Below, piece after piece: positions 12,927 to 36,270 of a stretch of DNA of 36,270 nucleotides. Position numbers and translations under genes: made by a program. The DNA comes from an uncultured Oscillospiraceae bacterium (GTDB taxonomy: Bacteria; Bacillota_A; Clostridia; Oscillospirales; Oscillospiraceae): contig CAJTTS010000012.1 in NCBI GenBank assembly GCA_910579155.1, forward strand, positions 32,754 through 69,023. The letters are read 5' to 3'. Each line of letters starts with the position of its first letter. Position 1 is the stretch's first letter. The notes beneath the pieces are model-generated. The model was given only the letters and a program-made list of their open reading frames with translations, did not search any database and was not told the DNA's origin.

Positions 12927-12950
12927 GCGCCACAACCTGTCCAAATTCTC

Positions 12951-12979: not shown

Positions 12980-13058
12980 GTTGTGGGAAATGGTCGCTGC
13001 CTATGGCCCCGCCGCCATCCCACCGCCGTTCAGGCAAGACCAACTGGAGGAATTTCAC

Positions 13059-14189
13059 TTGAGGAAACAAATCACAGCGTTTGCCCTGGCCCTCATATCC
13101 GTCCTGCTGCTGTTGTGCTCCAGTGTGCAGACAGCCTCGGCGGCCCAGCCCCAGGAGGATTACATTGCGGCCGTCCACACCAAAAGCAACGGCAATCCCT
13201 ACTACATCATGGTGAACCGGGCTCAGAGCACCGTTACGGTGTACGGCCTGGATGACGACGGGTATTACACCGTCCCTGTGAAGGCCATGATCTGCTCCAC
13301 GGGCCGCAAGGGCCACGCCACTTACCTCGGCACCTTCTCCATCGGCGGCAGGTGGCCCTGGCTGCATATGATCGACAACTCTTACGGCCAATACGCCACC
13401 CAGATCACCGGCAACATCCTGTTCCACTCCGTATGCTACACCAAAAAGGACCCCTCCACCCTGATGACCGAGGAATACAACGGGTTGGGCGCTCCCGCCT
13501 CTCTGGGCTGTGTGCGGCTCCAGACGGCGGACGCAAAGTGGATTTACGACAACTGTGCCTCCGGGACCAAGGTCACCATCTATGACGGGGCCGACCCCGG
13601 CCCCCTGGGCAAGCCCGACAAGCTGGTGGAGTACATCAGCGAAGAGCAGGCCAACGGCTGGGACCCCACCGACCCCCGGGAGGAGAACCCTTGGCACGAA
13701 CTTTTGACCGCCGGCCAGGACCCCGATCCCGAACCCGGCGCGGATTCCACCGCCCCGCCCCAGGACGAGGATACCCTGTCCTACACCCAAATGGCCCAGG
13801 CCCTTTATGAGCTGTCCTCCGGCAAGACGGGCCTTACCCGGCCCGACGACCCCATCTCCTGGGCCTGGGAACACCACCTGTTGGACGATATCGCGGGGGA
13901 CGGCTTCGACCCCTCCGCCCCCATCCCCCGGCAGGACCTGATTACCATGCTCTACCGGCATGAGACGCTCCGCTACCAGCGCAGCGTCCGTAATTTAGGT
14001 TCTATCGCCCGTTTTACCGACTGGCCCGATATCCGCCAATACGCCCGGACGCCTGTGCGCTGGGCCCTGGGGAACCGCCTGCTCAAGGGGTATTTGAGCG
14101 ATACCTTTGATCCGGACGGCAGCGTCACCCCGGACCAATTGGACGCGATTCTCCGGCAATACGCCCTGCTCCACCCCTCCCAACAATAA
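13059..14189 (+). CDS. Secreted L,D-transpeptidase (YkuD) with C-terminal SLH-like repeats
   Basis: I start this 376-residue protein at TTG 13059 (MRKQITAFALALISVLLLLC), 8 bases after CTGGAGG. This gives a clean Sec signal peptide ending near VQTASAA, and the upstream ATG at 12951 lies inside the promoter. The YkuD domain (about residues 40-190) has the catalytic histidine in ILFHSVCY and the cysteine motif SLGCVRL. YkuD enzymes form 3-3 crosslinks in peptidoglycan or attach proteins to it. The C-terminal half holds degenerate S-layer-homology-like repeats (DGFDPSAPIPRQDLITMLYR; SDTFDPDGSVTPDQLDAILR), which could hold it at the wall. Acidic proline-rich linker between the domains. Confidence 0.9.
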   Translation: MRKQITAFALALISVLLLLCSSVQTASAAQPQEDYIAAVHTKSNGNPYYIMVNRAQSTVTVYGLDDDGYYTVPVKAMICSTGRKGHATYLGTFSIGGRWPWLHMIDNSYGQYATQITGNILFHSVCYTKKDPSTLMTEEYNGLGAPASLGCVRLQTADAKWIYDNCASGTKVTIYDGADPGPLGKPDKLVEYISEEQANGWDPTDPREENPWHELLTAGQDPDPEPGADSTAPPQDEDTLSYTQMAQALYELSSGKTGLTRPDDPISWAWEHHLLDDIAGDGFDPSAPIPRQDLITMLYRHETLRYQRSVRNLGSIARFTDWPDIRQYARTPVRWALGNRLLKGYLSDTFDPDGSVTPDQLDAILRQYALLHPSQQ

Positions 14190-20526: not shown

Positions 20527-22053
20527 ATGAACGAAGCCCGCGATCCCCGCCCCAACATTCTTTTGGTCGTGACCGACCAGCAGCGGTTTGACACACTGGG
20601 CTGTTATGGTAATCCCCATGTAGACACTCCCAACCTGGACAAATTCGCCGCCGGCGGCGTCCTGTTTGAGCGCGCCTACTGCCAGTCGCCGGTGTGCACG
20701 CCCAGCCGGGCGTCCTTCCTCACCGGGCGATACCCCCGCACCACCCGCTGCCGGGCCAACGGGCAGTCCATGCCCCCATACGAGCGCCTGATCTCCCGTG
20801 TTCTGGCAGACCAGGGCTATTACTGCGGGCTGGCGGGCAAACTGCACCTGGCTCCCTGCGGGCCCAACGCCTGCCCGATTTATGAGAACCGCATCGACGA
20901 CGGATTTGTGGAGTTCCACTGGGCCCACAACCCTTCCGGCATCGGCAACGACGGCCTCCCCGAGTCGGGCGGCACTTACTGGAGCGGCAATGAGTACAGC
21001 CACTGGCTGTTCCAGCGGGGGGTGGAGTACAAATGCACCGACTACGATAAAATGGGCTACGTAAAAATCGGGATGGATGAGGAGAACCACTTCACCCGGT
21101 GGTGCATGGATCAGGCCATCCACTGGATCCGATATTCCGCAGAGGAAAAGCGGAACATGCCCCGGTTCAGCTCCCCGCCCTGGTTCTATAACATCAACAT
21201 CTTCGACCCCCACCACGCCTTCGACCCGCCTAAGCGCCTGCTGGACAAGTACCTGGCGCGGGCGGACAGCCTGCCCCTGCCCAATTACCTCCCCGGCGAG
21301 TGGGACGGCAAGACCGTATTTCAGCGGCTGGACCACGCCAACGCCTACAACAACACCAGCACTCCCCACCACTTCTGCTTTGACGAGATGACCCCGGAGG
21401 ATCACCGGAACATCAAGGCCGCCTACTACGCCATGGTGGAGCTGATCGACATCCAGTTCGGGCGGCTGATGGCGGCGCTGGAGGAATCCGGGGAGATCGA
21501 CAACACCATTGTAGTGTTTACCTCCGACCACGGAGAAATGCTGGGCGACCATGGGATTTATTTAAAGGGCCCCTATTTCTACGAGGGCATGGCCCACGTC
21601 CCCCTGATCGTCTCCTGGAAGGGCCACTTTACCCCAGGCATCCGCCTCCAAACGCTGACGGAGCTGACGGACCTGGTGCCCACCTTCGAGGAACTCTGCC
21701 TGGGGGAGATCGAACCCGGCGTCCAGGGCCGCTCCCTGACCGGCGTGCTCACCGGGAAGCAGGACCCCGCGTCCCACCGGGACAGCGTTTACTGCGAGTA
21801 TTATGAGGCCATGCCTTGGCACGCCCAACCGGAGGCCCACGGCACCATGGTCTTCGACGGGCGGTACAAACTCTCCCGGTTCCACTCCTCCAAAGAGGGG
21901 GAGCTCTACGACCTCCAGTCGGACCCCGGCGAACTCCGGAACCTGTGGGCGGACCCCGCCCATTCCCAGGTAAAGATTCAAATGCTGGAGCTGCTGGCAG
22001 ACCGCATGGCGGATACGGTGGACCCCCTTCCCCTGGCAACGGATAAGTGGTAA
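20527..22053 (+). CDS. Sulfatase (Cys-type, family S1)
   Basis: A 508-residue sulfatase with the metal site DQQ (NILLVVTDQQRFDTLGCYG), the formylglycine motif CTPSR at residues 57-61 in SPVCTPSRASFLTGRYP, GKLHL, and FTSDHGEMLGDHG. The C-terminus GRYKLSRFHSSKEGELYDLQ is typical of the family. No signal peptide, so cytoplasmic. Start at ATG with AAGAAAGGGAG upstream. It is clearly not a recent duplicate of the 14289 sulfatase, since the two diverge outside the motifs; they may act on different ester positions or serial intermediates. Followed by the maturase gene on the same strand. Confidence 0.93.
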   Translation: MNEARDPRPNILLVVTDQQRFDTLGCYGNPHVDTPNLDKFAAGGVLFERAYCQSPVCTPSRASFLTGRYPRTTRCRANGQSMPPYERLISRVLADQGYYCGLAGKLHLAPCGPNACPIYENRIDDGFVEFHWAHNPSGIGNDGLPESGGTYWSGNEYSHWLFQRGVEYKCTDYDKMGYVKIGMDEENHFTRWCMDQAIHWIRYSAEEKRNMPRFSSPPWFYNINIFDPHHAFDPPKRLLDKYLARADSLPLPNYLPGEWDGKTVFQRLDHANAYNNTSTPHHFCFDEMTPEDHRNIKAAYYAMVELIDIQFGRLMAALEESGEIDNTIVVFTSDHGEMLGDHGIYLKGPYFYEGMAHVPLIVSWKGHFTPGIRLQTLTELTDLVPTFEELCLGEIEPGVQGRSLTGVLTGKQDPASHRDSVYCEYYEAMPWHAQPEAHGTMVFDGRYKLSRFHSSKEGELYDLQSDPGELRNLWADPAHSQVKIQMLELLADRMADTVDPLPLATDKW

Positions 22054-22119
22054 TCACGAAAAAGCTTCGCCGCGAAACAGACTGACGCGGAATTGGCGGC
22101 GGACGCCTGACAAACATAA

Positions 22120-22157
22120 AAGTCCGGCCCAGAGCAAGATTCTCCGGACCGGACCTT
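22120..22157 (+). promoter_or_regulatory. Hairpin between the sulfatase and maturase genes
   Basis: GTCCGG ... CCGGAC with a small inner hairpin, followed by only three T. It looks like a weak attenuator that would lower maturase expression relative to the sulfatase. Confidence 0.35.
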
Positions 22158-22178
22158 TCAAAGAAAGGGGCGGAGTTT

Positions 22179-23369
22179 ATGGGTAAGTCCAGACTTCATA
22201 TTATGCTCAAGCCGGTAAGTGGGCTGTGCAATCTTCGGTGCAAATACTGCTTTTACGCGGACGAGACCACAAAGCGGGATGTGGGCGACCGCGGGACGAT
22301 GTCCCCGGCCACGCTGGAAAACGTCCTTCGCAACGCGCTGGCCGAGTGCTCCGGCCATTTGACGGTGGCGTTTCAAGGGGGCGAGCCCATGTTGGCCGGG
22401 CAGCCGTTTTTTGAGCAGGCCATGGCGCTGGCGGAAAAGCACAACGTCCACCGCTGCCGGATCGACTGGGCCATCCAGACCAACGGCGCCCTGTTGGATG
22501 AGGACTGGTGCCTCCTGTTCGCCCGGGGCCGCTTCCTGGTGGGCGTGTCCCTGGACGGGGACAAGGCTCTTCACGACGCCAACCGGGTGGACCCCCAGGG
22601 CCGGGGGTCTTACAGCCGGGTGCTCCGGGGGATTCGCCTGTTGGAAAAGCACGGGGTGGACTTCAATATCCTCACCGTACTCACCTCCGACGTCTGCCGG
22701 TCCTTCCGCCGGGTTTACAATTTCTACAGCAAAAACAATTGGGATTTCCAGCAGTATATCCCCTGCCTGGACCCCCTGGGGGAGCCGCGGGGAGCGCGCC
22801 CGTGGTCGCTGACCCCGGAGCGGTACGCCCAGTACCTCAAGACCGCCTTCGACTGCTGGTACGGGGACATTCTGTCCGGGCGCAAAAAGTACCACCGCTA
22901 TTTTGACAACCTTCTGCTCCTCTTGGACGGGCAGCCGCCGGAGGCGTGCGGCATGGGCGGCATATGCGGGATGCAGTACGTGGTGGAGGCGGACGGCTGC
23001 GTTTATCCCTGCGACTTCTACATGCTGGACCAGTACCAGTTGGGCAATCTCAACGAAGACAGCTTCGCGGATTTGGACCGTCGGCGGGAGGAGCTGCGCT
23101 GGATAGAGCAGAGCCGGGAGCAGGCGGCGGAGTGCGCCGCCTGCCCGTGGCACGCGCTGTGCCGGGGCGGGTGCCGCCGGGACCGGGACTACTTTGAAGC
23201 GGGTATCGGAATCAATTATTTCTGCGCCGCCTACCGGGAATTCTTCCCTTACGCGTACCCCCGGCTGGTCCAGGTACATCAGCTTCTGAGCGCGGCCCGC
23301 AATCCGGCGGGGCAAACGGCAGACGGGCGGGTTTCCCCTATAGAGTTTTTCAAAAGTCGAGGCGTCTAA
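22179..23369 (+). CDS. Anaerobic sulfatase-maturating enzyme (radical SAM, SPASM)
   Basis: A 396-residue radical-SAM enzyme that converts the active-site cysteine of Cys-type sulfatases to C-alpha-formylglycine without oxygen. The cluster motif CNLRCKYC gives Cys17, Cys21 and Cys24. Other signatures are FQGGEPMLAG, IQTNGALLD and VGVSLDGDKALHDANR. The C-terminal SPASM domain has the auxiliary-cluster cysteines (CGMGGICGMQYVVEADGCVYPCDFY ends here in two blocks; CAACPWHALCRGGC; YFCAAYREFF). Its substrates are very likely the two CxPSR sulfatases in this locus. The C-terminal tail after YPRLVQVHQLL is variable. Confidence 0.94.
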   Translation: MGKSRLHIMLKPVSGLCNLRCKYCFYADETTKRDVGDRGTMSPATLENVLRNALAECSGHLTVAFQGGEPMLAGQPFFEQAMALAEKHNVHRCRIDWAIQTNGALLDEDWCLLFARGRFLVGVSLDGDKALHDANRVDPQGRGSYSRVLRGIRLLEKHGVDFNILTVLTSDVCRSFRRVYNFYSKNNWDFQQYIPCLDPLGEPRGARPWSLTPERYAQYLKTAFDCWYGDILSGRKKYHRYFDNLLLLLDGQPPEACGMGGICGMQYVVEADGCVYPCDFYMLDQYQLGNLNEDSFADLDRRREELRWIEQSREQAAECAACPWHALCRGGCRRDRDYFEAGIGINYFCAAYREFFPYAYPRLVQVHQLLSAARNPAGQTADGRVSPIEFFKSRGV

Positions 23370-26049: not shown

Positions 26050-26077
26050 TATGTTTTTCCGGAAACGGGACGATATT
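26050..26077 (+). promoter_or_regulatory. Possible flagellar-sigma (sigma-28/SigD type) promoter
   Basis: ACGATATT at 26070-26077 matches seven of eight positions of the SigD -10 (CCGATATT). The -35 counterpart about 16 bases upstream (TATG for TAAA) is poor. It lies 50 bases before a flagellin-like gene, which raises its credibility. Confidence 0.35.
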
Positions 26078-26126
26078 GATAAAAAGGAGCATGGCCTTGA
26101 CGGCCTGGCGAAAGGGGGCCCGCGAG

Positions 26127-29072
26127 ATGGGAGAACTGATCGTTCGCAGAAACAGGGGGATGACCGTAGCCCGGTATGAGAAGACGGGTAAGGCGGAGAA
26201 GCAGGCCGGTACAAGCCAGGCCCCAAAAACAGCCGCCGCCAACCGTGCGCCGGCCACCGTCTCAGACACGCTGCGGGAGCTGATGACCCGGGTGACCCAA
26301 CTGGGGCGGCAGGCCAGGGAGGGCCGCCGGACGCTCCAGTCGGGGGAGGCCGCCCTGGCGGAGGTAGAGGACAACCTGGAACGCATGGAGGGGCTGGCCC
26401 GGGAGTCTGCGGGAGGCGGGGCGGTGGACCGCGCCGCCCTCCAAAGCTCGCTGGAACGGCTGCGGGGAGAAATTGACCGGATCGCCCGGGACGGTGTGGA
26501 AGCGGGGCTGTTTCAGGACGGGGACGAAGGCGAGGGCCTGGAAGCGCTGATCGACGCGGTGATGGACGGCCTGTCCGCCCGGCAGGAGCAGGCTCAGAGT
26601 CTACCCGGTTGGCTGCTGAACGGGATCGCCGACGCCCCTGACAGGGCGGCGCTGCTGGCCGCCCTGGGGGTGGACGGCGACGCCTCCATTTCAGACCTGC
26701 TGACCGCCCTGGGGCAGCTTCCCTTGGAGAGCGATTCCGCCTCGGGCTACCTGGCCGCGCTCTACCTGGGAACGGTCATCGCCGGAGGACGCCCCTCGGG
26801 GACAATCGACCCGGAGCTGGCGGCGGAAGGGCTGCGGCTGCTGCTGGACGCGGTGGCGGACGGCGTTTCGCCGGACGAGGCCATTGAACGGCTGACCGGC
26901 GGTATGTTTATCAGCATGGCGGATTTTGAGGCACAGTTCACTGCGGGTACGGCTCCGGGATTGCAGCCCTTTTTGATGGACCTGCTGCTGTCGGAGGACG
27001 GCGAGGCCGCCCTTACCTCCATGCTGGCCCTGATGGCGGACGGCGGCGGTGGGAACCTGGATGTGCTGATGGAGCTGATGACGGCCCTGGGCGGCTCCGG
27101 AGGCGGGTTGATGGAGCTGCTGGACGGGGCGGGTATGCAGGAAAGCGCGGAGGGTGCGCTCCCCCAACAGGAGACGTTGGAGCTGGGCGCGCTTCAGTTG
27201 ACGGGCCGGGATGTGTCCGGCGTGAGCGCCGACCCGGAGACCGGCACGGTGACGGTAGCCGGAACAGAAAGTTTGATTCTCCGGAGTCTGGGGCAGGAAC
27301 AGGAGACGGCGGCGGTCCGGCTCACCGGCTCGGCGACGGTGACGCTCCAGCAGGTGAACGTGCCGGTGTTGACGGCGGAGTCCCCCCAGGTCCGGCTGCT
27401 CAGCGCAGGGGAGAGCGCGCTGCTCCGGCTTCAACTGGGGGAGGGAACCACCCTCACCATAGACGGCGGCGGGCTGCTGCGCATCGGCACTCTGGAGGGC
27501 GGGGCGTCCAGCGTCCTGCGGCTGGCCGGAGGCGCGGTGGCGCTGACGGACGCGCAGGCCGGGAACCTGGCCGCCCCGGTGATGGTGGACGGACCCGTTT
27601 CCCTGCTGGCGGCGGAGGGGATCACCGTGGTCAATGCCCAGGGGAAACCGCTGGAGCCCTTTGACATTGTGTGGAAGCTGTTGCTTCCCAATTGGAGCTC
27701 GATTACCTCCCTGGCCGTGGACGGCAAGCAGGGGCCGCTGACCCTGATGCGGGACAATCAGGAGGACCCGGTGCGGCTGTGGCTGCTCAAGCAGGATTCC
27801 GACCAGAAATATCCCGCCCACACGCTGGCGCTCCGGGGCCGGGATAAGGCGGGCCGCCTCAAGACCCGGTATGTTTATGTGCGCTGGGACGAGCGGGGAA
27901 AGACCTTCCAGGAGATCTCCATGTATCCCAACCCCTTCACGGTCACCGGCGGGGAACAGGGCGTGGACTGGCGCTACGAGGAGGAGAGCCACACCCTCTA
28001 CATCCTGTCCAGTCAGGTGACCGCCATCGCCGGGGGAACCGGGACAGACGGCAACGAGCTGCCCTTCAGCGGCAGGATCGTCCTGTCCGATGGAATCGGC
28101 AGGGTGTCGCTGACCCTGGACGGCGTGGAATGCCGGGTGCCTACCGGAAAAGCGTTTGACCTGGGACGGGGCAATGATGTCACCCTGCTGCTACAGCGCG
28201 GGACGGACAACGTGTTTGAAAGCGGCGCGGGCTGCGCGGGAATCTCCATGGGAGACGGCACCTCCCTGCTCATCGACCAGGCGAAGGGCGCCCGCGGGGC
28301 GCCGGACGGGACCCTGACCGCCACCGGCGGGTCCGGCGGCGCGGGCATCGGCCGGGACAGCGGCACGGTACGGGAGCCCACCGGCCCCATCCGCATTCAG
28401 GGCGGCACGGTCACCGCCGTGGGCGCCGGAGGCGGCGCGGGCATCGGCGGGGCGCTGGGTGCGCCAGTGGGAGATATCCGCATCCAGGGCGGTACAGTGA
28501 GCGCTCAGGCGGGCTGCTGCGCCGCTGCCATCGGCGCGGGCATCCAAGGGGCCTGCGGCGACATCGTCATCACCGGCTCCGCCAAGGTGGTGAAGGCCCA
28601 GGGCGGCGGGCCGGACGGCGACATCGGCGGGTGCCTGTTCGGCAACTGCGGGAAAGTCCGGGTGTCCGCCGGGACGGACATCGGCGCGGCCAAGCTGTGG
28701 ACCCAAAGGGGGCTGTCCATGCAGGTAGGCGAGTCCACCGTGACGCTGCCCAGGTTCCGCGTATCCACCGGGGCTTTGCACCTGGACGAGCTGGATATCT
28801 CCACCAGGGAGGCGGCAAAGACCGCCATGTCCGTGCTCACCTCCGACCGGCGCTGGGTCACCCGGCTCCAGGGGGCCTACGGCGCGATGTACGGCCAGTT
28901 GGCGCAGAGCTTTGGCAGCATGTACAGCGTCAACCGGTACTTCAGCGTGGTGCGGGACACCAGCGAGGCCAGTTCGCTGGTGATGGATATCCGCGAGGTG
29001 CTGCGCCAGTCCCCGCTGGCAAAATTCCTCCAGGAGCGCGGGATGGAGGACGTGGGGCAGTTGCTGCGGTGA
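26127..29072 (+). CDS. Giant flagellin-like protein with hypervariable insert
   Basis: A 981-residue protein. Start at ATG 26127 (MGELIVRRNRGM), 7 bases after AGGGGGC; this resembles flagellin starts of the type M-LIV-N. Residues about 48-132 look like the flagellin D1 helices: GRRTLQSGEAALAEVEDNLERM, then LARESAGG and LERLRGEIDRIA. The last 95 residues also match the flagellin end: ISTREAAKTAMSVL, LQGAYGAMYGQLAQSFGSMY, and RDTSEASSLVMDIREV to VGQLLR. The normal D0 helix region is degenerate. Between lie about 750 residues with a beta-rich region and glycine-rich repeats (GGAGIG, IRIQGGTV, about 730-825) as in carbohydrate-binding adhesins. No signal peptide; export would need a flagellar-type route. 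Monocistronic, with no flagellar genes nearby. Confidence 0.75.
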   Translation: MGELIVRRNRGMTVARYEKTGKAEKQAGTSQAPKTAAANRAPATVSDTLRELMTRVTQLGRQAREGRRTLQSGEAALAEVEDNLERMEGLARESAGGGAVDRAALQSSLERLRGEIDRIARDGVEAGLFQDGDEGEGLEALIDAVMDGLSARQEQAQSLPGWLLNGIADAPDRAALLAALGVDGDASISDLLTALGQLPLESDSASGYLAALYLGTVIAGGRPSGTIDPELAAEGLRLLLDAVADGVSPDEAIERLTGGMFISMADFEAQFTAGTAPGLQPFLMDLLLSEDGEAALTSMLALMADGGGGNLDVLMELMTALGGSGGGLMELLDGAGMQESAEGALPQQETLELGALQLTGRDVSGVSADPETGTVTVAGTESLILRSLGQEQETAAVRLTGSATVTLQQVNVPVLTAESPQVRLLSAGESALLRLQLGEGTTLTIDGGGLLRIGTLEGGASSVLRLAGGAVALTDAQAGNLAAPVMVDGPVSLLAAEGITVVNAQGKPLEPFDIVWKLLLPNWSSITSLAVDGKQGPLTLMRDNQEDPVRLWLLKQDSDQKYPAHTLALRGRDKAGRLKTRYVYVRWDERGKTFQEISMYPNPFTVTGGEQGVDWRYEEESHTLYILSSQVTAIAGGTGTDGNELPFSGRIVLSDGIGRVSLTLDGVECRVPTGKAFDLGRGNDVTLLLQRGTDNVFESGAGCAGISMGDGTSLLIDQAKGARGAPDGTLTATGGSGGAGIGRDSGTVREPTGPIRIQGGTVTAVGAGGGAGIGGALGAPVGDIRIQGGTVSAQAGCCAAAIGAGIQGACGDIVITGSAKVVKAQGGGPDGDIGGCLFGNCGKVRVSAGTDIGAAKLWTQRGLSMQVGESTVTLPRFRVSTGALHLDELDISTREAAKTAMSVLTSDRRWVTRLQGAYGAMYGQLAQSFGSMYSVNRYFSVVRDTSEASSLVMDIREVLRQSPLAKFLQERGMEDVGQLLR
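28300..28600 (+). repeat. Glycine-rich protein repeats within the flagellin-like gene
   Basis: Three successive units of the form GGAGIG or AAIGAG, then a spacer, then GPIRIQGGTVTA / GDIRIQGGTVSA / GDIVITGSAKV. Such units make a right-handed beta-helix-like stack in many clostridial surface proteins. Two adjacent cysteines (GCC) and further cysteines sit in this stretch, unusual for a filament protein. Confidence 0.65.
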
Positions 29073-29144: not shown

Positions 29145-29498
29145 TGTCCGGGCCCGAAGAGCGGGCCGGAAAATCATCAAAGAAAATCATTCCATTGTCC
29201 AACAGCCAATCCACGGCTAAATCCAATGCCGCCAATTCCACATCCGGCTTCACCTTTTCCCGTGGAAATCGCTGCCGCCGACCTGGTGGAGACGGTATTT
29301 CTCCGTCAGGTGGATATAAAATTCCTGCTGCGCCGGTGTGTACTTGGGGTAATCGCATTCGATGGCATTCAGACCCCGGTCTTTGAGTTGCTTCACCAAA
29401 GAGTCCAACTCATCGTCCGGCAGTCCCACCAGCTCAACAGGACTGTACTACCCGTCCGACGCGGTGGTGTGGGTGTGAAGCTCCATCCGCAACTTCAT
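29145..29498 (-). pseudogene. Decayed PHP-domain phosphoesterase (TrpH/YciV type)
   Basis: The minus-strand reading begins MKLRMELHTHTTASDG, the HxH metal motif of PHP phosphoesterases, and then meets TAG at 29450-29448. The same frame resumes with YSPVELVG and jumps to LPDDELDSLVKQLKDRGLNA, then YPKYTPAQQEFY and VGGSDFHGK, the C-terminal motifs of the family. About 140 central residues are missing, and a frame change follows GKR before KPDVEL. So the gene has a nonsense codon, an internal deletion and a frameshift. Its ATG overlaps the stop of the nucleotidyltransferase gene (ATGA), showing it was once the coupled last gene of that operon. TrpH/YciV-type enzymes hydrolyse 3',5'-bisphosphonucleotides. 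Confidence 0.8.
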
Positions 29499-30238
29499 TG
29501 TGCCAGCTCCTTCCGGAACTCCCGCTCGTATACTTCAATGTCGCGCTCAGAATCACATTCCAACCAAAGCGCGTCTGTGGAGATAACCTGGATCGGGAAG
29601 TTCTGTTCCGTCATCCCCTGCAAAAGAGTGGTCATATCCAGCTTGCCCACCGTTTTTGGCAGCGGATGCCGGATTGTTTCCTCAACCCATCCCCAACTCT
29701 CCGGGGTAAACCGCAGCAGCCCCATAAACTGCCCCTGAACGTCGGCACGGGTTTGGGGCTTCTGTCCGATTTCCAGCAACCGGCCGCTTCCATCCGCCCG
29801 AAATGTTTCCAGGTCCTCCAACGGGTCGTCCATGCGCTTCTGCCACAGCCCCCAATAGCCCATATAGGATGTGATGGCCAGCGGCGCTGTGCAGTTTGCC
29901 AGCAGGCGGATTACCTCCGGCGCAAAAACGATGTCGGAGTAGCAGACCAGACAGGGCTCATTTTGCAGCCACTCCCTGGCCATTGTGAGGGAGTAGAACA
30001 TGTTGGTTTGCTCCCAGATTTCGTTGCGAAAATAGGTTACCCCAGGTACGGTAAACATACCGCTCCGATACCCAGTCACAATACCAATATCCGAACGGGA
30101 AATTCCCGCCCGCTCCAACGCTTCCATACAGCGGTCCAGCAGAGTCCGGCCACATAGCGTGCACATGCACTTGGGCTTATCTTTGGTCCGTGCGCCTAAA
30201 CGGCTGCCCCTTCCGGCGGCAAGAATGATGACCTTCAT
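29495..30238 (-). CDS. Nucleotidyltransferase, likely CTP:phosphoglutamine cytidylyltransferase (Cj1416-like)
   Basis: A 247-residue NTP-transferase fold enzyme: LAAGRGSRLGARTKDKPK at residues 6-23 binds the nucleotide, and the metal aspartate lies in CYSDIVF (Asp102). It resembles sugar-1-phosphate and LicC-type cytidylyltransferases. Its place after a glutamine-kinase-like and an amidotransferase gene matches C. jejuni cj1416c, whose product couples CTP to L-glutamine phosphate, giving CDP-L-glutamine. The specific reaction is inferred from gene order. Its start overlaps the amidotransferase stop by 4 bases, and its own stop overlaps the start of the decayed PHP gene. Confidence 0.85.
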   Translation of the reverse strand: MKVIILAAGRGSRLGARTKDKPKCMCTLCGRTLLDRCMEALERAGISRSDIGIVTGYRSGMFTVPGVTYFRNEIWEQTNMFYSLTMAREWLQNEPCLVCYSDIVFAPEVIRLLANCTAPLAITSYMGYWGLWQKRMDDPLEDLETFRADGSGRLLEIGQKPQTRADVQGQFMGLLRFTPESWGWVEETIRHPLPKTVGKLDMTTLLQGMTEQNFPIQVISTDALWLECDSERDIEVYEREFRKELAQ

Positions 30239-30801
30239 AAGCGGAACGCCTCCCTAAAACGCTGAATATCCTGCTCCCGGAATCGCGCGTATCGCTCCGG
30301 ATGCCACATGATCCCCTGTATCCACGGGCAGGCGCCGTGCCTTACCGCTTCCAAAACCCCGTCCGTACTCCATGCCATAGGGGTAAGTGGCGGATGACAT
30401 TCTACCGCCCCCCAGCCATGGAAGCTGTTGACCAAATCGCCGTTGTCCAAGGGGTGCTCTACCCGAATATGCCCCCCAATCCGTTGAAGCGGGGTCTCGA
30501 AATAGTCCAAAAGCACCTGCATCCCACGGCACACCCCGTAAAGCGGGGTTCCCGTTTCTATGGACCACCGGATCAGCTCGCGCTCTATCTCGTCCCGCTC
30601 CGGCGCGTCGCCGCCGCAGGAAGCCAGATCGTTTCCGCCGGTGAGGATGATCCCCGCGACGGGCAGCGCCTCCATCAGTTCCCGCACCGTCGGCAGATGG
30701 TTTGGCAGCGTCAACGGCAGAAAGCCGCAGGCTTCCATGAAGACCGCCCAATCCTGGGCGAGGGCGTCCCGCCGCTCTCCAATCGCTTCGATCCGCTCCA
30801 C
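30235..30801 (-). CDS. Class I glutamine amidotransferase, likely CDP-L-glutamine hydrolase (Cj1417-like)
   Basis: A PuuD-type class I amidotransferase domain: nucleophile Cys91 in YGVCRGMQ, His167 and Glu169 in IMWHPER, and the loop IILTGGNDL. The C. jejuni equivalent splits CDP-L-glutamine into glutamate and CDP-phosphoramidate, leaving the amide nitrogen on phosphorus. The GTG at 30801 gives 188 residues but omits the first beta strand. In-frame codons upstream read IKKLIALTQRV, which family members would be expected to contain; yet between the in-frame stop (about 30846) and 30801 there is no ATG, GTG or TTG. Translation may begin at a rare codon (ATC 30831, CTG 30822 or ATT 30819), coupled to the overlapping upstream stop. 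Start uncertain; family assignment firm. Confidence 0.8.
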   Translation of the reverse strand: MERIEAIGERRDALAQDWAVFMEACGFLPLTLPNHLPTVRELMEALPVAGIILTGGNDLASCGGDAPERDEIERELIRWSIETGTPLYGVCRGMQVLLDYFETPLQRIGGHIRVEHPLDNGDLVNSFHGWGAVECHPPLTPMAWSTDGVLEAVRHGACPWIQGIMWHPERYARFREQDIQRFREAFRL

Positions 30802-30818
30802 CCGCTGGGTCAGCGCAA

Positions 30819-33140
30819 TCAGTTTCTTGATACAATCACCACCGTTTGATTCCTACAGTCGATCTCCAGCCGCCGGGCGGCGGCGTACCGGTTGAATCGC
30901 TGCTCGCCTACGCCCACCACAGCAGGGATGCCGAACTCCGCCGCGCGGATCGCCATGTGGGAGTTGGCCCCGCCGTAAGCCGTGATGAACCCGGCAATCG
31001 AGTGGGAAAATATCCAGTCGTAGCCCGGATCCGCTCCCCGGATCAGCACCAGCTTCCCTTCCAGCGAGGATTCCGGCGCGGGAAGCTGCACGGTTTCCGC
31101 AGCGCAGCGCTTTTGTGTAATAAAATTGGGGCTCCCTTCCGGCATAAAAAAGCTGTATATCTGTCCCTCCTCCCACAAAAGCGGCGGAAGCGTAATGCCG
31201 GACGAAGCGCACTCCTGTTCCCGCCCGGCCAAGATGGAGTCCCGCAAAATCCGTTCCAGATCGTCCGCGCTGGAATAGGTCTCGGTGATGCGCCGGATGG
31301 ACGCGTAGGACATATCCTCCCGCGTCAGGCCAAACTCCGCCCCAAGCCGGACCAACAGTTCCAACACATCGGAAAGCGTCTGCGTAAAGACAAACTTGGC
31401 GTATTCCCGGCCCTCTATGGCGTACCGGATGAAGTGAAACAGGGATAGAACATCGGCTGGAAGCCGATGTTCCTCCAGCATATGCTGGAGGCGTTCAAAC
31501 TGCCCCAGAGACAGCTTGAATGCCGTCTCCTCCTCCGGGTCCCCGCCGGCGGATTTGGAAAAGTCAAAATACTGTTCCCGCCCCTGGTCGTACCGGGGGG
31601 AACAGATGTCATAGGTTCCGGGGCGAAGATGGCCGTACCGCGCTAAAAACGTGTCGGAGTCCAGCGCGGCAAAATCCCGCGTGATATTTTTGCCGACGGT
31701 GGACAGGCTGTTCATGTACAGCATGCGTTCTTCCTCGCTCATCACGCCGGTGGCCACCATAGAGCGCAGAAGATCCACCGCAATAAACCCCGCCCGGGCC
31801 AGCCCCGCAAAGGGCAACGTTCCGTAGCGCTTGCAGTATTCCAGGAGCCAGTATATCTTTTCCGCCGTCCCCAGGCTGCTGTTCACGATTTTGCAGCGCT
31901 TCTCCTGTAGGACCGCAATCTTTTCGGCATCCTTCTGCCACAGTCCGTCCTTGCGGATGATGGAACTGGTCAGCTCCCGCAGGGCATCCACAAGGCAAGC
32001 CCGCTCCTCTGCGGTAAAGCCATGGGCCTCCAGCGCTTTGACGCGTTCCGGCAGGTCGAAGGTGTAGCAGGTGAACGCGATCTCAAATTCCACCTTGTCG
32101 TGGAGCTCCGGCGAGGTCCGAAGCCGGTGCAAATAGTATTCCGTCAGCTTTTCCGCCAGCGGTTCCGGCAGCACCTTGGGCAGAAATGAATTGAAACTTA
32201 CCCGCGTATCAATATAGGGAAGCCCCTGAAAATCCACCATCAGGGGGAAGGAACGCAGGTTCCGATACCCATAGTTGTCCCGCTGGTAGGCCCACACGCC
32301 GTCGGTTATAATCTCCTTGTAGAGACTCAGCGCCAGCGCCCTGGGGCGGATGCCGATCATCTCCGCCGGATTCCAGTCCGGCATGACCCCATAGATCGTT
32401 TCCTTGCCGCACAGGTCCGGGTGGGGCAGCATGGACCCCCGCAGCTTTGCCCGGATTTGCTCAAGACTGCGCCGCTGCTCCTCCAGGTCCTTTACTGGCC
32501 GGCGCAGAACCAGCGGCCGCACCTGCAATAAGTATAATTCTCCGTCTGCTATGGCAAATTCAAGGTCCAAAGCGGGGCGCTGAAATAATTCCTCCAACTC
32601 CCGGCACAGCCGGACGACCTGCTCCAGCGGTGCGGGGGGCAAATCCGGCGAGCCCTTAAAATGGTAAAAGGTTTTCAAATGCGTCCCGGTTCCGTCCGTC
32701 ACGGAGGTGGTGGAGCCGGTGGCGCAGTCATAATTGAGGACGTAGTAATTGCCACCCGTATTGGGGTCCACAGTAAAGGCCACCCCGCACAGCTCCACAT
32801 CCGCCAAAAACGGCTGGATGAGGATTTGGTTTTCCGGGTCCGGTCCCATGGACTCCGCCACCTGCGCGACGGTGCGTAAGATGTCCGTTTCGCCCTTCAC
32901 ATCGGGGATGGAGAGGTATTTCCCGGCGTTGGAGCACTCCGCCGTATCTTCATTTTGGGCGCTGCTGCGGACAATCAAGCGCCGCTCCAGCAAGCCTGCG
33001 TCCCGCAGCATCGTGATGGCGCGAGCCGGACGGGACCGAGCTTCTCCGGCGGTCAGGCACACCTGGGGGAGGAGCTGCGCTGTGGTGAGTTTACCGGCAA
33101 GATCCCACAGTGTACCTGCTTTGGTTGAAAACTCCATCAT
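30819..33140 (-). CDS. PEP-synthase-like phosphotransferase, likely L-glutamine kinase (Cj1418-like)
   Basis: A 773-residue protein with an N-terminal ATP-grasp domain of the PEP synthase/PPDK type (VRSSAQNEDTAECSNAGKYLS; VELCGVAFTVDPNTGGNYYV) and a C-terminal phosphohistidine domain, TAYGGANSHMAIRAAEFGIPAVVG, with His at about 728. Only 45 residues follow that histidine. The PEP/pyruvate-binding barrel that follows it in PEP synthase and PPDK is absent, so the phosphoryl acceptor is something else. Cj1418 has this layout and phosphorylates the amide nitrogen of glutamine, using ATP to give AMP and phosphate. Start at ATG 33140 (MMEFSTKAGTLWDL) after AAAGGA; the ATG at 33173 would overlap the methyltransferase gene. 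Confidence 0.87.
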   Translation of the reverse strand: MMEFSTKAGTLWDLAGKLTTAQLLPQVCLTAGEARSRPARAITMLRDAGLLERRLIVRSSAQNEDTAECSNAGKYLSIPDVKGETDILRTVAQVAESMGPDPENQILIQPFLADVELCGVAFTVDPNTGGNYYVLNYDCATGSTTSVTDGTGTHLKTFYHFKGSPDLPPAPLEQVVRLCRELEELFQRPALDLEFAIADGELYLLQVRPLVLRRPVKDLEEQRRSLEQIRAKLRGSMLPHPDLCGKETIYGVMPDWNPAEMIGIRPRALALSLYKEIITDGVWAYQRDNYGYRNLRSFPLMVDFQGLPYIDTRVSFNSFLPKVLPEPLAEKLTEYYLHRLRTSPELHDKVEFEIAFTCYTFDLPERVKALEAHGFTAEERACLVDALRELTSSIIRKDGLWQKDAEKIAVLQEKRCKIVNSSLGTAEKIYWLLEYCKRYGTLPFAGLARAGFIAVDLLRSMVATGVMSEEERMLYMNSLSTVGKNITRDFAALDSDTFLARYGHLRPGTYDICSPRYDQGREQYFDFSKSAGGDPEEETAFKLSLGQFERLQHMLEEHRLPADVLSLFHFIRYAIEGREYAKFVFTQTLSDVLELLVRLGAEFGLTREDMSYASIRRITETYSSADDLERILRDSILAGREQECASSGITLPPLLWEEGQIYSFFMPEGSPNFITQKRCAAETVQLPAPESSLEGKLVLIRGADPGYDWIFSHSIAGFITAYGGANSHMAIRAAEFGIPAVVGVGEQRFNRYAAARRLEIDCRNQTVVIVSRN

Positions 33141-33148
33141 ACGAGAAG

Positions 33149-33901
33149 CTATCCTTTCTTCTGTGCCATCCAAATCCGCGTTGTATAGGGCACGGCAATC
33201 GTCTCCTGATGCAGACTCTCAACAGTGGCGCGAATCTCCCCGATGATTTTTTCAAACACCTCCGGCGATTGGCGGTACACTGTGCCGTGGGACTTCCAGC
33301 CCTCAATGAAGTCCTCGGCTGGGATGTGGTGGACCACCTGACCGGAAAAGAACTGTACGTCCTTGAACAGCCCCGAACTCTGAATCACTTCCGTCTGGTC
33401 TTCCCGGCGGGTGCCATATTGATAGCCCGGAATATTTTTCTTTATGACCGCCTCGATCTTTTGCTGGAGCGGATCGTCCAGATCGCGGTGGTTCCACATA
33501 CAGGCAAAGTACCCGCTGGGCTTCAAAATACGGCTGGTTTCCGCCAAGGCCTGCTGCCTGTCACAAACATTGAAAGACGAGCCGAACGTAACCAGATCGA
33601 ATTTCGATGCGTCCATGCCAGTATCCTCGCCCACGCCCTCAAACCACGAAACATTCGGATATTCACTCGTCCGCTTGATTCCATTTGCCCGCATTGCGTC
33701 ATTGGGCTCCACAGCGCACACAACCAGTCCGGCCTTTGCCAACTCCAGCGTCAGGTGAGCGGCTCCGGCGCCCACGTCACATGCGGTGTCCCCCTGCTTT
33801 ACCCCGGCGCGGATCAAAAGCTCCTGAATCGCGCTAGGCGCATAATCCGGGCGGCGCAGGTACGCATCCGCCAAATTTGTATAATCCCATTCTGTTTTCA
33901 T
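33149..33901 (-). CDS. SAM-dependent methyltransferase (Cj1419-like)
   Basis: A 250-residue class I methyltransferase: motif I CDVGAGAAHLTL (residues 41-52), the acidic ribose-binding end of strand 2 in VCAVEPNDAMRANGIKR, and LVTFGSSFNVCD followed by LAETSRILKPSGYFACMW. It begins MKTEWDYTNLADAYLRRPDY. In the C. jejuni MeOPN locus a methyltransferase lies directly before the glutamine kinase, as here, and is thought to O-methylate the phosphoramidate. Gap of 4 bases after the kinase gene. C. jejuni has two methyltransferases (cj1419c, cj1420c); only one is seen here. Confidence 0.88.
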   Translation of the reverse strand: MKTEWDYTNLADAYLRRPDYAPSAIQELLIRAGVKQGDTACDVGAGAAHLTLELAKAGLVVCAVEPNDAMRANGIKRTSEYPNVSWFEGVGEDTGMDASKFDLVTFGSSFNVCDRQQALAETSRILKPSGYFACMWNHRDLDDPLQQKIEAVIKKNIPGYQYGTRREDQTEVIQSSGLFKDVQFFSGQVVHHIPAEDFIEGWKSHGTVYRQSPEVFEKIIGEIRATVESLHQETIAVPYTTRIWMAQKKG

Positions 33902-33905
33902 GTCC

Positions 33906-34433
33906 TTACTCCTTTACATTTTTAATTGCCGATTGTAATACCGATATTTGTTCCTCCGGCGTCATGGCGCCGTCGTTCACCAGGATCATATCCGGCCTCT
34001 TGGGCTCCTCGACTTTAACGTGGAGTCCTGCCACATCCTGCCGCGCGGTGCTGTATAGCCCCTTTTGATCCCGGCGGCGCAGGGTCTCTTCGGTTACTTT
34101 GATGTACACCTCAAAATATCCGGGAATATTTTCCCGGTTCCACGCCCGCACACTGTCGAACATGGAAATTGTGCAGCACACCACCGTAAAGCCCTGCTTC
34201 CCCAGCAGTGCGCACAGCCTGGCGTTGCGCATGGCGCTCTTGCGGCGGTCTGCCTCTGTGTAACCCAGGTCGTCGCCAAATACCTGCCGGAGCTCGTCCC
34301 CGTCCAGGAAAACGACGTTTTCTCCTTCGGTCTTCAGCTTCTCATACCACAGCCGCCCAATCGTAGTTTTGCCCGCCCCGGACAGACCCGTAAGCCAATA
34401 TATACGGCCTGTGCTGTTTTCCAAGCTAGCCAT
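33906..34433 (-). CDS. CysC-like kinase, likely CDP-phosphoramidate 3'-kinase (Cj1415-like)
   Basis: A 175-residue P-loop kinase of the APS-kinase fold: Walker A GLSGAGKTT (16-24), DGDELR (44-49), GYTEADRRKSAMRNARL. A true APS kinase has a conserved SFISPYRxxRD segment; here the equivalent is CTISMFDSVRAWNRENIPGY, so the sulfate-side contacts are altered. There are no ATP sulfurylase genes. The C. jejuni counterpart adds a 3'-phosphate to CDP-phosphoramidate. The stop of the upstream sulfotransferase-fold gene overlaps its start by 8 bases. An automatic annotation as adenylylsulfate kinase would be understandable but probably misleading. Confidence 0.85.
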   Translation of the reverse strand: MASLENSTGRIYWLTGLSGAGKTTIGRLWYEKLKTEGENVVFLDGDELRQVFGDDLGYTEADRRKSAMRNARLCALLGKQGFTVVCCTISMFDSVRAWNRENIPGYFEVYIKVTEETLRRRDQKGLYSTARQDVAGLHVKVEEPKRPDMILVNDGAMTPEEQISVLQSAIKNVKE

Positions 34434-36084
34434 CCCCTTCCGGGCAAATCATATCTGTGATCAGCTCATGGCTGTCCTGGGCAAGGTAGTCCAGGATCAT
34501 CTTTACAACGCCGCTATAATAGGGCGGGACACCCGGTGCGAGATAGCCGTGCTTTTGCGTTTCCACGTATACTTCATTCACCCATTCTTCATACCGGAAT
34601 GGCTCTTGAAACAGTTCCTCCCAGAATGCCTCTGAAAAATTACGGTAATCCGGCAGATCGCAGTCGTAGCCATACGCTCGCTGAACATTTTGAAACGCAA
34701 AATTCAAACGAAACACATCGTAAGTACTTAAAAACTTTGAAAAATCATGGCAATCTATCGCTGTCGTGTCATGCGCAGAAATCGTCCTCTTTTTATCTGT
34801 AGCAGCGCTTGGGAAATAGACTTTGATCCCGTTGACCGTAGTCTCCAGCATGCACTCGTCAAATTTGATATCCATCCAGTTGCATACTGCTTGCATCGTC
34901 TCCCGCGTTCGCCGCTTGGCGTCTTCAAAACGAATGACTTTGATGATTTTATTTTGATTTTCTGCTCGCCTTTCCAGCCCTATGCCAAGGCTTCCTGAAA
35001 AGCATTTATAAAGTGCATCAGGATGAAACCAACGATATCTTCTTTCCAACACCCATCTCTGATACATCAGTTGGATACTGGAAAAGACCTGCTGTACGGG
35101 TTCTCTAATAATAACCCAATGCTCAAAGCGGTTAAAATCCTCTGGCGAGAGAAGTCCATCGTATTCCGTTGTATTACAGTCTGTCAGGTGAGTCTCAAAA
35201 AAAATCCAATAAGGCTGCCCAGGAATGTATTGTTTCCCAATTATGTTGTGGTACGCAGCAAAAATAGCCTTGAATAAACATGTAAAAGAGACACATCCCT
35301 TTCCCATCAGCAGTCCGGCCAATGCAGAAATGAACTTTGTTGGAGAGATATAGACTCTTTCTTCGCATTCGCCGTCGCTAGTCAAATAATGGCCTAATAG
35401 ATTCTGCTTTACCGCATGAGAAGTAAAATATGCCTGCATATGCCGTGCCACTTCTATGACCAACTCATCATCCTCCAAATATTGGAGTTGATCTAAATAG
35501 GCCTTCTTTAAAGAAACAAAGGCTCCGAACCCTCCAATATTCAATATGTTGGGGTGACCATCCATCAGCATATCAAAGAACATTGTTCCGCTGCGTCCCG
35601 TTGAACTGAACAGGACTATATTTTTAAGCCGCTCAGGTGTGAAAGATGAACTGTCTGGAATTTTGGAGTGTTTCAAAGCCTCTAAGCCACCGTCCAATAA
35701 AAACAAATAGCGCAATGGATAAAAGGCTGAATCCTTGCTCAACAAGTTTCTTTCCTTTAAACAAGTTTTCATCCGGTCCCGTGGGCCGTTCTTGGCGCCA
35801 CTTGTTGCTGTAATAATATAAATCGCACTAGGAAAGCGTTGTGCCGCTTCGTCCAAAGAAATAACCGGCACGGATATTCCGTCACATTCAAAATTACTGC
35901 CCTGCTTCTGGGGATCGTCGTCACAAAAGCAAGCCGGTTTTACCTGGAACAACGCAAATATCTGAAGTGCTATTTCCCCCAGGACACCGGCTCCGTATAG
36001 AACGAGGCCCTTTTCCCGAACGTGGTCCACAATTGAATAAATACTGCGATAGGATTCCATATCCGTTGACTTTTTCGGTTTCAT
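34426..36084 (-). CDS. Two-domain protein: Rossmann-like N-terminus and sulfotransferase-fold C-terminus
   Basis: A 552-residue protein. Residues about 26-110 form a Rossmann-like unit (GLVLYGAGVLGEIALQIFAL, then CFCDDDPQKQG and VPVISLDEAAQRFPSAIYIITA), like the nucleotide-binding domains at the front of some sugar-modifying enzymes. From about 150 the sulfotransferase fold begins: the 5'-phosphate loop VLFSSTGRSGTMFF (about 153-167) and a 3'-phosphate-type segment WVIIREPVQQVFSSIQLMY (about 315-333). The literal reading is a PAPS-dependent sulfotransferase. In this operon a 3'-phospho-CDP donor is more likely, making it a candidate phosphoramidate transferase (inference). The base composition is clearly less GC-rich than the rest of the window, which suggests transfer. 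ATG follows TTGGGAGAAT. Confidence 0.8.
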   Translation of the reverse strand: MKPKKSTDMESYRSIYSIVDHVREKGLVLYGAGVLGEIALQIFALFQVKPACFCDDDPQKQGSNFECDGISVPVISLDEAAQRFPSAIYIITATSGAKNGPRDRMKTCLKERNLLSKDSAFYPLRYLFLLDGGLEALKHSKIPDSSSFTPERLKNIVLFSSTGRSGTMFFDMLMDGHPNILNIGGFGAFVSLKKAYLDQLQYLEDDELVIEVARHMQAYFTSHAVKQNLLGHYLTSDGECEERVYISPTKFISALAGLLMGKGCVSFTCLFKAIFAAYHNIIGKQYIPGQPYWIFFETHLTDCNTTEYDGLLSPEDFNRFEHWVIIREPVQQVFSSIQLMYQRWVLERRYRWFHPDALYKCFSGSLGIGLERRAENQNKIIKVIRFEDAKRRTRETMQAVCNWMDIKFDECMLETTVNGIKVYFPSAATDKKRTISAHDTTAIDCHDFSKFLSTYDVFRLNFAFQNVQRAYGYDCDLPDYRNFSEAFWEELFQEPFRYEEWVNEVYVETQKHGYLAPGVPPYYSGVVKMILDYLAQDSHELITDMICPEGDG

Positions 36085-36172: not shown

Positions 36173-36270
36173 TCACCTGATAACAAGTTCCTGTATTATC
36201 TTTACGAGCCGGCTCGCCCCGTTCCCATCCACCATTGCCTGCATCCGTTCCGCCATGTGCTGGCGGAGGG
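36173..36270 (-). CDS. C-terminal end of a PseG-like nucleotide-sugar hydrolase or glycosyltransferase (partial)
   Basis: The last 32 codons of a gene that runs off the window: LRQHMAERMQAMVDGNGASR, then LVKIIQELVIR and TGA. The DGNGASRLV ending resembles the C-termini of PseG and related GT-B-fold enzymes (DGKGA-R). PseG acts in pseudaminic acid synthesis, a sugar used on flagellins and capsules. The short fragment makes this tentative. Confidence 0.4.
   Translation of the reverse strand, partial: LRQHMAERMQAMVDGNGASRLVKIIQELVIR

What the first reader, a model, noticed from the sequence alone, without database searches (positions are those of the whole stretch)
29495..36084. An O-methyl phosphoramidate (MeOPN)-type biosynthetic operon in a Gram-positive spore-former
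Seen: a CysC-like kinase, a SAM methyltransferase, a PEP-synthase-like kinase without PEP domain, a class I glutamine amidotransferase and an NTP transferase, all on one strand with overlaps or gaps mostly under 20 bases. Known: the C. jejuni MeOPN locus (cj1415c-cj1420c) has these five families, and the order methyltransferase - glutamine kinase - amidotransferase - cytidylyltransferase is identical. Pathway there: Gln to glutamine phosphate, to CDP-glutamine, to CDP-phosphoramidate, to its 3'-phospho form, then methylation and transfer to capsule. Inference: this gut Firmicute decorates a surface glycan with a P-N group, a modification mainly known from Campylobacter capsule and linked there to serum and phage interactions.
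Basis: partly seen in the sequence, partly recalled or inferred. Interest (0 to 1): 0.94.

Follow-up and report, generated by a model that had tools for sequence, protein, structure and literature searches.

The report
Phosphoramidate-tagging operon beside a flagellin gene
A likely spore-forming bacterium related to gut Oscillospiraceae carries a tight six-gene cluster that is predicted to build a phosphorus-nitrogen (phosphoramidate) tag, known in print mainly from the Campylobacter capsule, and to attach it with a sulfotransferase-like enzyme, likely to its flagella; related clusters occur in many bacterial phyla, often close to flagellin genes.

Summary
In detail: minus-strand genes at 29495-36084 encode a glutamine-kinase-like dikinase (K), an amidotransferase (G), a cytidylyltransferase (C), a CysC-like kinase (A) and a methyltransferase (M). 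G and C accompany K in 83 and 82 of 86 loci from many phyla; A is fused to K in nine. Of 39 carrier genomes (my pick), 34 have an S-type domain, 30 within 10 kb of K; none of 390 other genomes of a class draw has one at that threshold. In 25 of the 39 no ATP sulfurylase was found, so sulfation is unlikely there. Best reading (inferred): K, C, G and A make 3'-phospho-CDP-phosphoramidate, a PAPS look-alike, and S transfers its P-N group. Flagellin lies within 25 kb of K in 15 of 39 carriers (2.6 expected), and one genome has three flagellin-S-A modules, two with another cytidylyltransferase; a flagellar glycan is the likelier acceptor, and 3'-phospho-CDP donors may be a general class. No chemistry was shown, no Campylobacter sequence could be fetched, and the window's G gene lacks a usual start codon.

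The parts
34426..36084 (-). S: predicted (methyl)phosphoramidate transferase, 552 aa; residues 23-126 Rossmann-like domain, 141-477 sulfotransferase fold with a 5'-phosphosulfate-type loop (SSTGRSGTMFF..HP) and a 3'-phosphate-type motif (REPVQQVFS); motif names recalled
33906..34433 (-). A: CysC-like kinase, predicted CDP-phosphoramidate 3'-kinase (Cj1415-like)
   Evidence: PF01583 2.5e-31; PRK05541 over cut-off; departs from two solved APS kinases at the SPY and lid motifs
33149..33901 (-). M: SAM methyltransferase, predicted to O-methylate the phosphoramidate intermediate or product
   Evidence: PF08241 1.2e-13; present in 63 of 72 loci with A against 3 of 14 without A; one M-K fusion (L021)
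30819..33140 (-). K: predicted L-glutamine kinase (Cj1418-like), 773 aa from ATG 33140; the ORF extends to TTG 33173
30235..30831 (-). G: predicted gamma-glutamyl-CDP-amidate hydrolase (Cj1417-like); homologous frame begins with ATC (30831-30829), first usual start is GTG 30801
   Evidence: NF045546 4.5e-29, 101.9 bits, cut-off 250; GVCRGMQ and MWHPE motifs; start codon comparison
29495..30238 (-). C: predicted CTP:phosphoglutamine cytidylyltransferase (Cj1416-like)
   Evidence: PF12804 3.3e-17; best solved relative CTP:phosphocholine cytidylyltransferase 1jyk, E 4.9e-7
29190..29498 (-). remnant of a PHP-domain gene that follows C in L002; early stop and missing middle part
   Evidence: read in the sequence; intact relative L002:13634-14455, PF02811
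26076..29072 (+). flagellin-like protein, 998 aa, convergent with the cluster; possible carrier of the modified glycan
   Evidence: Flagellin_N 36.8 bits, cut-off 26.6; weak matches of both ends to flagellins of L008 (E 9.6e-13) and L002 (E 1.7e-10)

Best explanation
The six minus-strand genes at 29495-36084 form one tightly packed cluster, likely an operon, that is predicted to make a 3'-phosphorylated CDP-phosphoramidate donor and likely to transfer its (methyl)phosphoramidate group, by a sulfotransferase-fold enzyme, onto a surface glycan, most probably that of flagella. Proposed steps, all inferred from family membership: K phosphorylates the amide of L-glutamine with ATP; C couples the product to CMP; G removes glutamate, leaving CDP-phosphoramidate; A phosphorylates the 3'-OH of the nucleotide; M adds the O-methyl group at a stage not known; S uses the 3'-phospho-CDP-phosphoramidate as sulfotransferases use PAPS and moves the P-N group to a sugar hydroxyl. 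Shown here: the gene set and its conservation, a sulfotransferase fold for the predicted model of S, the linkage of S with K, the failure to find ATP sulfurylase in many carriers, and the nearness of flagellin genes.
For: (1) Families and domain content of the six proteins. (2) Conservation with K: G 83, C 82, A 72, M 66 of 86 loci. (3) Fusions: A-K in 9 loci, M-K in L021, C-like stretch with K in L083, K-G in L086; A with a methyltransferase domain in L093 and L094. (4) K fold: best match rifampin phosphotransferase over its whole length; no PEP domain. (5) S fold: sulfotransferases. (6) S-domain profile at E<=1e-12: 34 of 39 carriers, 35 of 45 segments within 10 kb of K; 16 of the 21 carriers that did not feed the profile; 0 of 390 other genomes of the class draw, seven of which have weaker matches. 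(7) ATP sulfurylase: Sat in 2, CysN over cut-off in 11, CysD over cut-off in 9 of 39 carriers; counting G035 (matches below cut-off) as positive, 25 have none, among them the complete chromosome of Anaerotruncus colihominis; all 25 have a CysC-family gene, 23 within 10 kb of K. (8) Flagella: flagellin in 35 of 39 carriers against 36 of 150 genomes of the G009 family; flagellin within 25 kb of K in 15 of 39, 2.6 expected; order flagellin-S-A-M-K-G-C in L008, and in L091 and L098, which are the contigs of L004 and L009; flagellin-S-A without K in L089 and L090; FlgK and a flagellin-domain protein (FlgL by my reading) just upstream of K in L045.
Against: No activity or product was measured. No Campylobacter sequence could be fetched, so homology to Cj1415-Cj1422 is indirect. 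G is below the NCBI equivalog cut-off. In the window G lacks a usual start codon and the PHP gene after C is broken, so this copy may be weak or decaying. The window's own genome is not held: the lack of ATP sulfurylase and the presence of flagella are known only for relatives, and 14 of the 39 carriers do have, or may have, an ATP sulfurylase. S is found near K in only 27 of 86 loci in the strict tally (34 with the domain profile), and in five of 39 carriers the profile finds none; other families (Sulfotransfer_1/3, Glyphos_transf) lie near K in some loci. S with A is 26 of 72 against 1 of 14 without A, p 0.055 only. In the S proteins of L008, L089 and L098 the first nucleotide loop reads SHNG or THNG and the second motif is altered. 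Four carriers have no flagellin. The flagellin-like protein of the window is atypical.
Confidence: 0.62

Rival explanations
1. Sulfation: A is a true APS kinase, S a PAPS sulfotransferase that sulfates a surface glycan, and K-G-C do something unrelated.
For: A's closest solved relatives are APS kinases, S has a sulfotransferase fold, and up to 14 of 39 carriers have an ATP sulfurylase.
Against: In 25 of 39 carriers no Sat, CysN or CysD was found, yet all 25 have a CysC-family gene and 22 an S-type domain; A is fused to K in nine loci; the family differs from two solved APS kinases at the SPY and lid motifs.
Confidence: 0.06
2. Same pathway, but the acceptor is a cell-surface polysaccharide (capsule, wall glycan or exopolysaccharide), as in Campylobacter, and the nearness of flagellin genes only reflects shared glycan islands.
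For: Glycosyltransferase and sugar-nucleotide genes lie near the cluster in L001 and L002; four of 39 carriers (G020, G035, G037, G039) have no flagellin gene; Campylobacter uses its capsule (PMC3907429, passages).
Against: Flagellin-S-A modules without K (L089, L090); 15 of 39 carriers have flagellin within 25 kb.
Confidence: 0.3
3. The cluster makes an unmethylated phosphoramidate, and M methylates a sugar or serves another step.
For: Cj1419 and Cj1420 have no assigned function (PMC11800397, passages); unmethylated phosphoramidate occurs in Xanthomonas and Shewanella LPS (as cited in PMC3907429, passages).
Against: M is tied to A, 63 of 72 loci against 3 of 14, p 1.8e-6, and methyltransferase domains are fused to A or K in three loci.
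Confidence: 0.2
4. The window's copy is decaying and no longer functional.
For: G has ATC at the place of the usual start; the PHP gene is a remnant.
Against: The other five reading frames are full length against their families; non-ATG starts exist.
Confidence: 0.15

Closest known systems
Campylobacter jejuni O-methyl phosphoramidate pathway (Cj1415-Cj1418, transferases Cj1421/Cj1422)
   Same: Same enzyme families, same order methyltransferase - glutamine kinase - hydrolase - cytidylyltransferase, CysC-like 3'-kinase; the Campylobacter enzymes make CDP-phosphoramidate 3'-phosphate, called the likely donor (PMC11800397, passages).
   Different: CysC gene before the methyltransferase, one methyltransferase instead of two, a sulfotransferase-fold first gene, no capsule gene recognised among the 20 left-hand ORFs scanned with Pfam (an ABC-2 transporter pair lies at 11431-12926), a flagellin-like gene beside it. 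Whether Cj1421/Cj1422 share the fold of S was not tested.
PAPS-dependent sulfotransferases (CurM ST domain, tyrosylprotein sulfotransferase)
   Same: Fold and the two nucleotide-binding motifs of S.
   Different: S has an added Rossmann domain, 9-15% identity to the sulfotransferases listed, and relatives of it sit in genomes where no ATP sulfurylase was found.
Rifampin phosphotransferase / PEP synthase / PPDK superfamily
   Same: Nucleotide domain and swivelling His domain of K.
   Different: K lacks the PEP/pyruvate domain; its middle part is mostly helical.
Flagellar glycosylation islands (described for Clostridium botulinum in PMC2674064, section read; Pseudomonas recalled)
   Same: Glycan genes next to flagellin or flgK-flgL.
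   Different: Phosphoramidate is not among the flagellin glycans described in the section of PMC2674064 that I read.

Membership tests
C. jejuni-type phosphoramidate pathway | Dikinase with nucleotide and His domains but no PEP domain (glutamine kinase type) | tested here: met
   PPDK_N and PEP-utilizers only; PRK05849 over cut-off (that this model covers Cj1418 is recalled); His motif in 83 of 87 long ORFs by pattern, missed in L011, L029, L057 and L073; fold
C. jejuni-type phosphoramidate pathway | gamma-glutamyl-CDP-amidate hydrolase equivalog (NF045546, cut-off 250 bits) | tested here: inconclusive
   best NCBIfam model by far, 101.9 bits, below the cut-off; ten G proteins of other loci score 75-129 bits, none over it
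C. jejuni-type phosphoramidate pathway | MobA-like nucleotidyltransferase next to hydrolase and kinase | tested here: met
   CTP preference itself not testable
C. jejuni-type phosphoramidate pathway | CysC-family kinase in the cluster | tested here: met
   substrate not testable
C. jejuni-type phosphoramidate pathway | Direct homology to Cj1415-Cj1422 sequences | not tested
C. jejuni-type phosphoramidate pathway | P-N group on a surface glycan; enzyme activities | not testable with these tools
   needs 31P NMR, mass spectrometry and assays
True APS kinase / sulfation module | ATP sulfurylase in the same genome | tested here: inconclusive
   none found in 25 of 39 carriers, present or possible in 14; the window's own genome is not held
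True APS kinase / sulfation module | SPY and YE.P..P lid motifs seen in two solved APS kinases (their weight as APS motifs is recalled) | tested here: not met
   consensus of 73 family sequences against 7yq0 and 2yvu
Sulfotransferase fold | fold plus 5'- and 3'-phosphate-binding motifs | tested here: met
   first loop altered in some relatives
PAPS-dependent sulfotransferase (function) | PAPS as donor | not testable with these tools
   no route to PAPS found in 25 of 39 carriers
PEP synthase / PPDK | PEP/pyruvate-binding domain | tested here: not met
   no such Pfam domain in K; best fold rifampin phosphotransferase

The most novel reading that the evidence does not exclude
Nature has a second PAPS-like currency: nucleotide donors of the form 3'-phospho-CDP-X, made by a CysC-like kinase and spent by sulfotransferase-fold enzymes that transfer a phospho-group X instead of sulfate. 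In this operon X is (methyl)phosphoramidate made by K, C and G; in sister modules (flagellin - S - A, L089 and L090) an IspD/ribitol-phosphate-type cytidylyltransferase stands in their place, so X would be another phosphate ester. The acceptors are flagellin glycans, so flagella of gut Clostridia, Pseudomonas and others carry phosphorus-nitrogen tags.
Probability: 0.38. Interest if true: 0.93.

Novelty: new variant of a known kind. Interest (0 to 1): 0.82.

Why it matters
In the papers I saw, phosphoramidate glycan tags are described almost only for Campylobacter (a 2022 review speaks of a C. jejuni-specific glutamine kinase, PMC9561416, passages), where they bear on serum resistance and phages (PMC3907429, passages). 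If this reading is right, the pathway is a widely but patchily spread bacterial trait, the odd 3'-phosphate on the donor gets a purpose (it is the handle for a sulfotransferase-fold transferase), and flagella become the likely carrier in many species. Labels seen on records of this family, such as phosphoenolpyruvate synthase and adenylyl-sulfate kinase, would then mislead.

Tried and rejected
Sulfation: judged unlikely because none of the nine carriers closest to the window (L001-L009) has a Sat match or CysN/CysD over cut-off. True PEP synthase: rejected, no PEP domain and another best fold. The tail of the ORF that ends 88 bases upstream of S (36270-36173) was compared by short BLAST with the ORFs of all loci then held; nothing was found, so whether it is a flagellin end is open. 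Reaching Campylobacter proteins: plasmids and phages, the 14 control genomes and a homologue search with a mixed S alignment gave none. Promoter- and terminator-like sites were near chance level (9 against 5.1 with sd 2.5, and 7 against 7.5). The first neighbourhood profiles were contaminated by fused proteins, so counts come from single-sequence searches, which leave out L087 (a second copy of L020) and the window. The pattern hunt for sulfotransferase motifs gave leads only. The S-A association on the strict tally is borderline (p 0.055).

Limits of the genome counts: the 39 carriers were picked by me out of 80 loci, many because S had been seen there; 18 fed the S profile, hence the separate count on the other 21, and even these are not fully independent (G001 and G017 bear the same species name). 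The class draw has 391 genomes: G001 itself, one more K carrier (G301, without S) and 389 others. Kinship of L001-L009 with the family drawn was not checked, and two of them (G007, G008) have only weak flagellin matches.
Full report
What is there. Six minus-strand genes fill 36084-29495: S (552 aa), A (175 aa), M (250 aa), K (773 aa from ATG 33140), G (198 aa if read from ATC 30831) and C (247 aa). S-A and G-C overlap by 8 and 4 bases, A-M and M-K are 4 and 8 bases apart. Pfam and NCBIfam place A in the CysC family (PRK05541 over its cut-off), M among class I methyltransferases, K in PRK05849 (924 bits, cut-off 501) with the PPDK nucleotide domain and the PEP-utilizers mobile domain only, G in class I GATases with NF045546 (gamma-glutamyl-CDP-amidate hydrolase) as best model but below its cut-off, and C in MobA-like NTP transferases. 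The best solved relative of C is CTP:phosphocholine cytidylyltransferase.

How widespread is it? A scan of genome contigs with two K motifs gave 592 stretches (limit reached), 528 of them relatives; 80 loci were kept. By their record titles they come from Firmicutes, Proteobacteria, Acidobacteria, Verrucomicrobia, Spirochaetes, Planctomycetes, Nitrospina, Elusimicrobia and others. Five plasmid loci and one record filed under phages were added. In these 86 loci single-sequence searches find G in 83, C in 82, A in 72, M in 66. A is fused to the N-terminus of K in nine loci, M to K in L021, a C-like stretch to K in L083, K to G in L086; A to a methyltransferase domain in L093 and L094. M goes with A: 63 of 72 loci against 3 of 14 (p 1.8e-6). 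The trait is patchy: K at E<=1e-100 in 2 of 391 genomes of one class and 1 of 300 of one family, the centre genome counted in each. So K-G-C looks like a core and A-M like an add-on.

Does S belong to the pathway? In the 86 loci the strict tally has S in 27, and a domain profile at E<=1e-3 finds it in 34. In 39 carrier genomes (of 80 loci, picked by me and not at random) a profile of 22 S-type domains gives 45 segments at E<=1e-12 in 34 genomes; 35 segments in 30 genomes lie within 10 kb of K. Of the 21 carriers that did not feed the profile 16 have it, against 0 of 390 other genomes of a class draw, one of which is a K carrier; seven of the 390 have weaker matches, 3.5e-11 to 7e-6. Near clusters where the S profile found nothing there are other Sulfotransfer_1/3 proteins in L027, L052, L055 and L077, and Glyphos_transf proteins in L046, L070 and (below Pfam's cut-off) L082.

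Why a sulfotransferase fold? In Campylobacter, Cj1415-Cj1418 make CDP-phosphoramidate 3'-phosphate, which PMC11800397 (passages) calls the likely donor. A 3'-phosphate on the nucleotide is what sulfotransferases read in PAPS (established knowledge). S with A thus makes sense of the CysC-like step. True sulfation is hard to hold for most of these carriers: PF01747 (Sat) is found in 2 of 39, CysN over cut-off in 11, CysD over cut-off in 9; counting G035, with matches below cut-off, as positive too, 25 carriers have none, including the complete A. colihominis chromosome. All 25 have a CysC-family gene, 23 within 10 kb of K, and 22 an S-type domain. The A family (73 sequences) also lacks the SPY motif and the YE.P lid of two solved APS kinases.

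Where does the tag go? Beside the 3' end of the cluster, convergent, lies a 998-aa flagellin-like protein (26076-29072): Flagellin_N over its cut-off, both ends weakly similar to flagellins of L008 and L002. In L008 a typical flagellin ends 98 bases before S. In L091 (strain D16-76, the contig of L004) and L098 (an Oscillibacter MAG, the contig of L009) the order is flagellin-S-A-M-K, then C, with G between K and C as read in L004 and L009. In L045 FlgK and a flagellin-domain protein (FlgL by my reading) lie just upstream of K, and similar proteins do so in L033, L044, L050, L051 and L072. Flagellin is encoded by 35 of 39 carriers, against 36 of 150 genomes of the family of G009. On the contig of K, flagellin is within 25 kb in 15 of 39 carriers; 2.6 are expected from flagellin density, and 0 of 200,000 simulations reached 15. 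Four carriers have no flagellin, so flagella cannot be the acceptor everywhere.

A wider principle. For strain D16-76 (G005) no ATP sulfurylase was found, but three of its flagellin genes are each followed by S and A (L089, L090, L091). Only L091 goes on with M and K. The other two go on with an IspD/ribitol-phosphate-type cytidylyltransferase (ribitol-phosphate model at 160.7 bits, cut-off 166, in L089; IspD models best in L090, below cut-off), in L089 with an FkbM methyltransferase between, in L090 with two epimerase-family genes after it. The simplest reading is that S and A handle 3'-phospho-CDP-linked groups of more than one kind. This is inference.

Doubts. Nothing biochemical was measured. 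No Campylobacter protein could be fetched, so 'Cj1418-like' rests on NCBIfam models, on literature and on what I know of the family; that PRK05849 and PRK05541 cover Cj1418 and Cj1415 is recalled, not tested. The window's G gene has ATC at the place where relatives have a usual start (32 of 32 tested have one within twelve codons), and the PHP gene after C is broken, so this copy may be impaired. S has 44% G+C against 55-62% for the other five genes and 62% for window 1-26000, which suggests that it was acquired separately.

Prior art. Searches of the open-access library showed no title or opening of an abstract that links phosphoramidate with flagellin modification, with a sulfotransferase-type transferase, or with Clostridia; some searches listed 20 of 31, 15 of 45 and 10 of 47 papers, and I opened passages of ten papers in all. 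Subscription papers, the original enzyme papers of 2017-2018 among them, did not appear in the listings. PMC9561416 (passages) speaks of a C. jejuni-specific glutamine kinase; PMC3907429 (passages) found orthologues in 13 of 30 Campylobacter strains and cites phosphoramidate in Xanthomonas and Shewanella LPS.

Verdict.

Noticed in passing
L089, L090 (G005, strain D16-76): Two extra flagellin - S - CysC-like modules without K, with an IspD/TarI-like cytidylyltransferase instead; suggests other 3'-phospho-CDP-linked groups.
   Followed up: partly
window 26076-29072: 998-aa flagellin-like protein with a long glycine-rich, beta-helix-looking insert (by eye) between flagellin-like ends.
   Followed up: partly
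window 30829-30831: ATC at the place of the start codon of the amidotransferase gene; GTG ten codons further in is the first usual start.
   Followed up: partly
window 29190-29498: Remnant of a PHP-domain gene that is intact after C in L002.
   Followed up: partly
window 36173-36270: End of an ORF 88 bases upstream of S, cut by the window edge; its tail weakly resembles the end of the 998-aa flagellin-like protein by eye.
   Followed up: partly
window 20527-23369: Sulfatase gene followed by a radical SAM/SPASM protein (possible sulfatase maturase), after a ROK regulator.
   Followed up: no
L085 (Agrobacterium vitis plasmid), 8908-13997: K-G-C followed by a LysE-type translocator and a CDP-alcohol phosphatidyltransferase family gene; no CysC or methyltransferase found there: perhaps another phosphoramidate end product.
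   Followed up: no
L086 (MT837632.1): Record named Bacteriophage sp. holds a K-G fusion beside ORFs that look by eye like thioredoxin reductase, PRPP synthetase and a Mur ligase; it may be a piece of a bacterial chromosome.
   Followed up: no
L028 (Paenibacillus kobensis) 2799-5567: S-type domain behind what looks by eye like an adenylate-forming (ANL) domain.
   Followed up: no
L010, L024: Radical SAM/SPASM gene directly after C in K-G-C loci.
   Followed up: no
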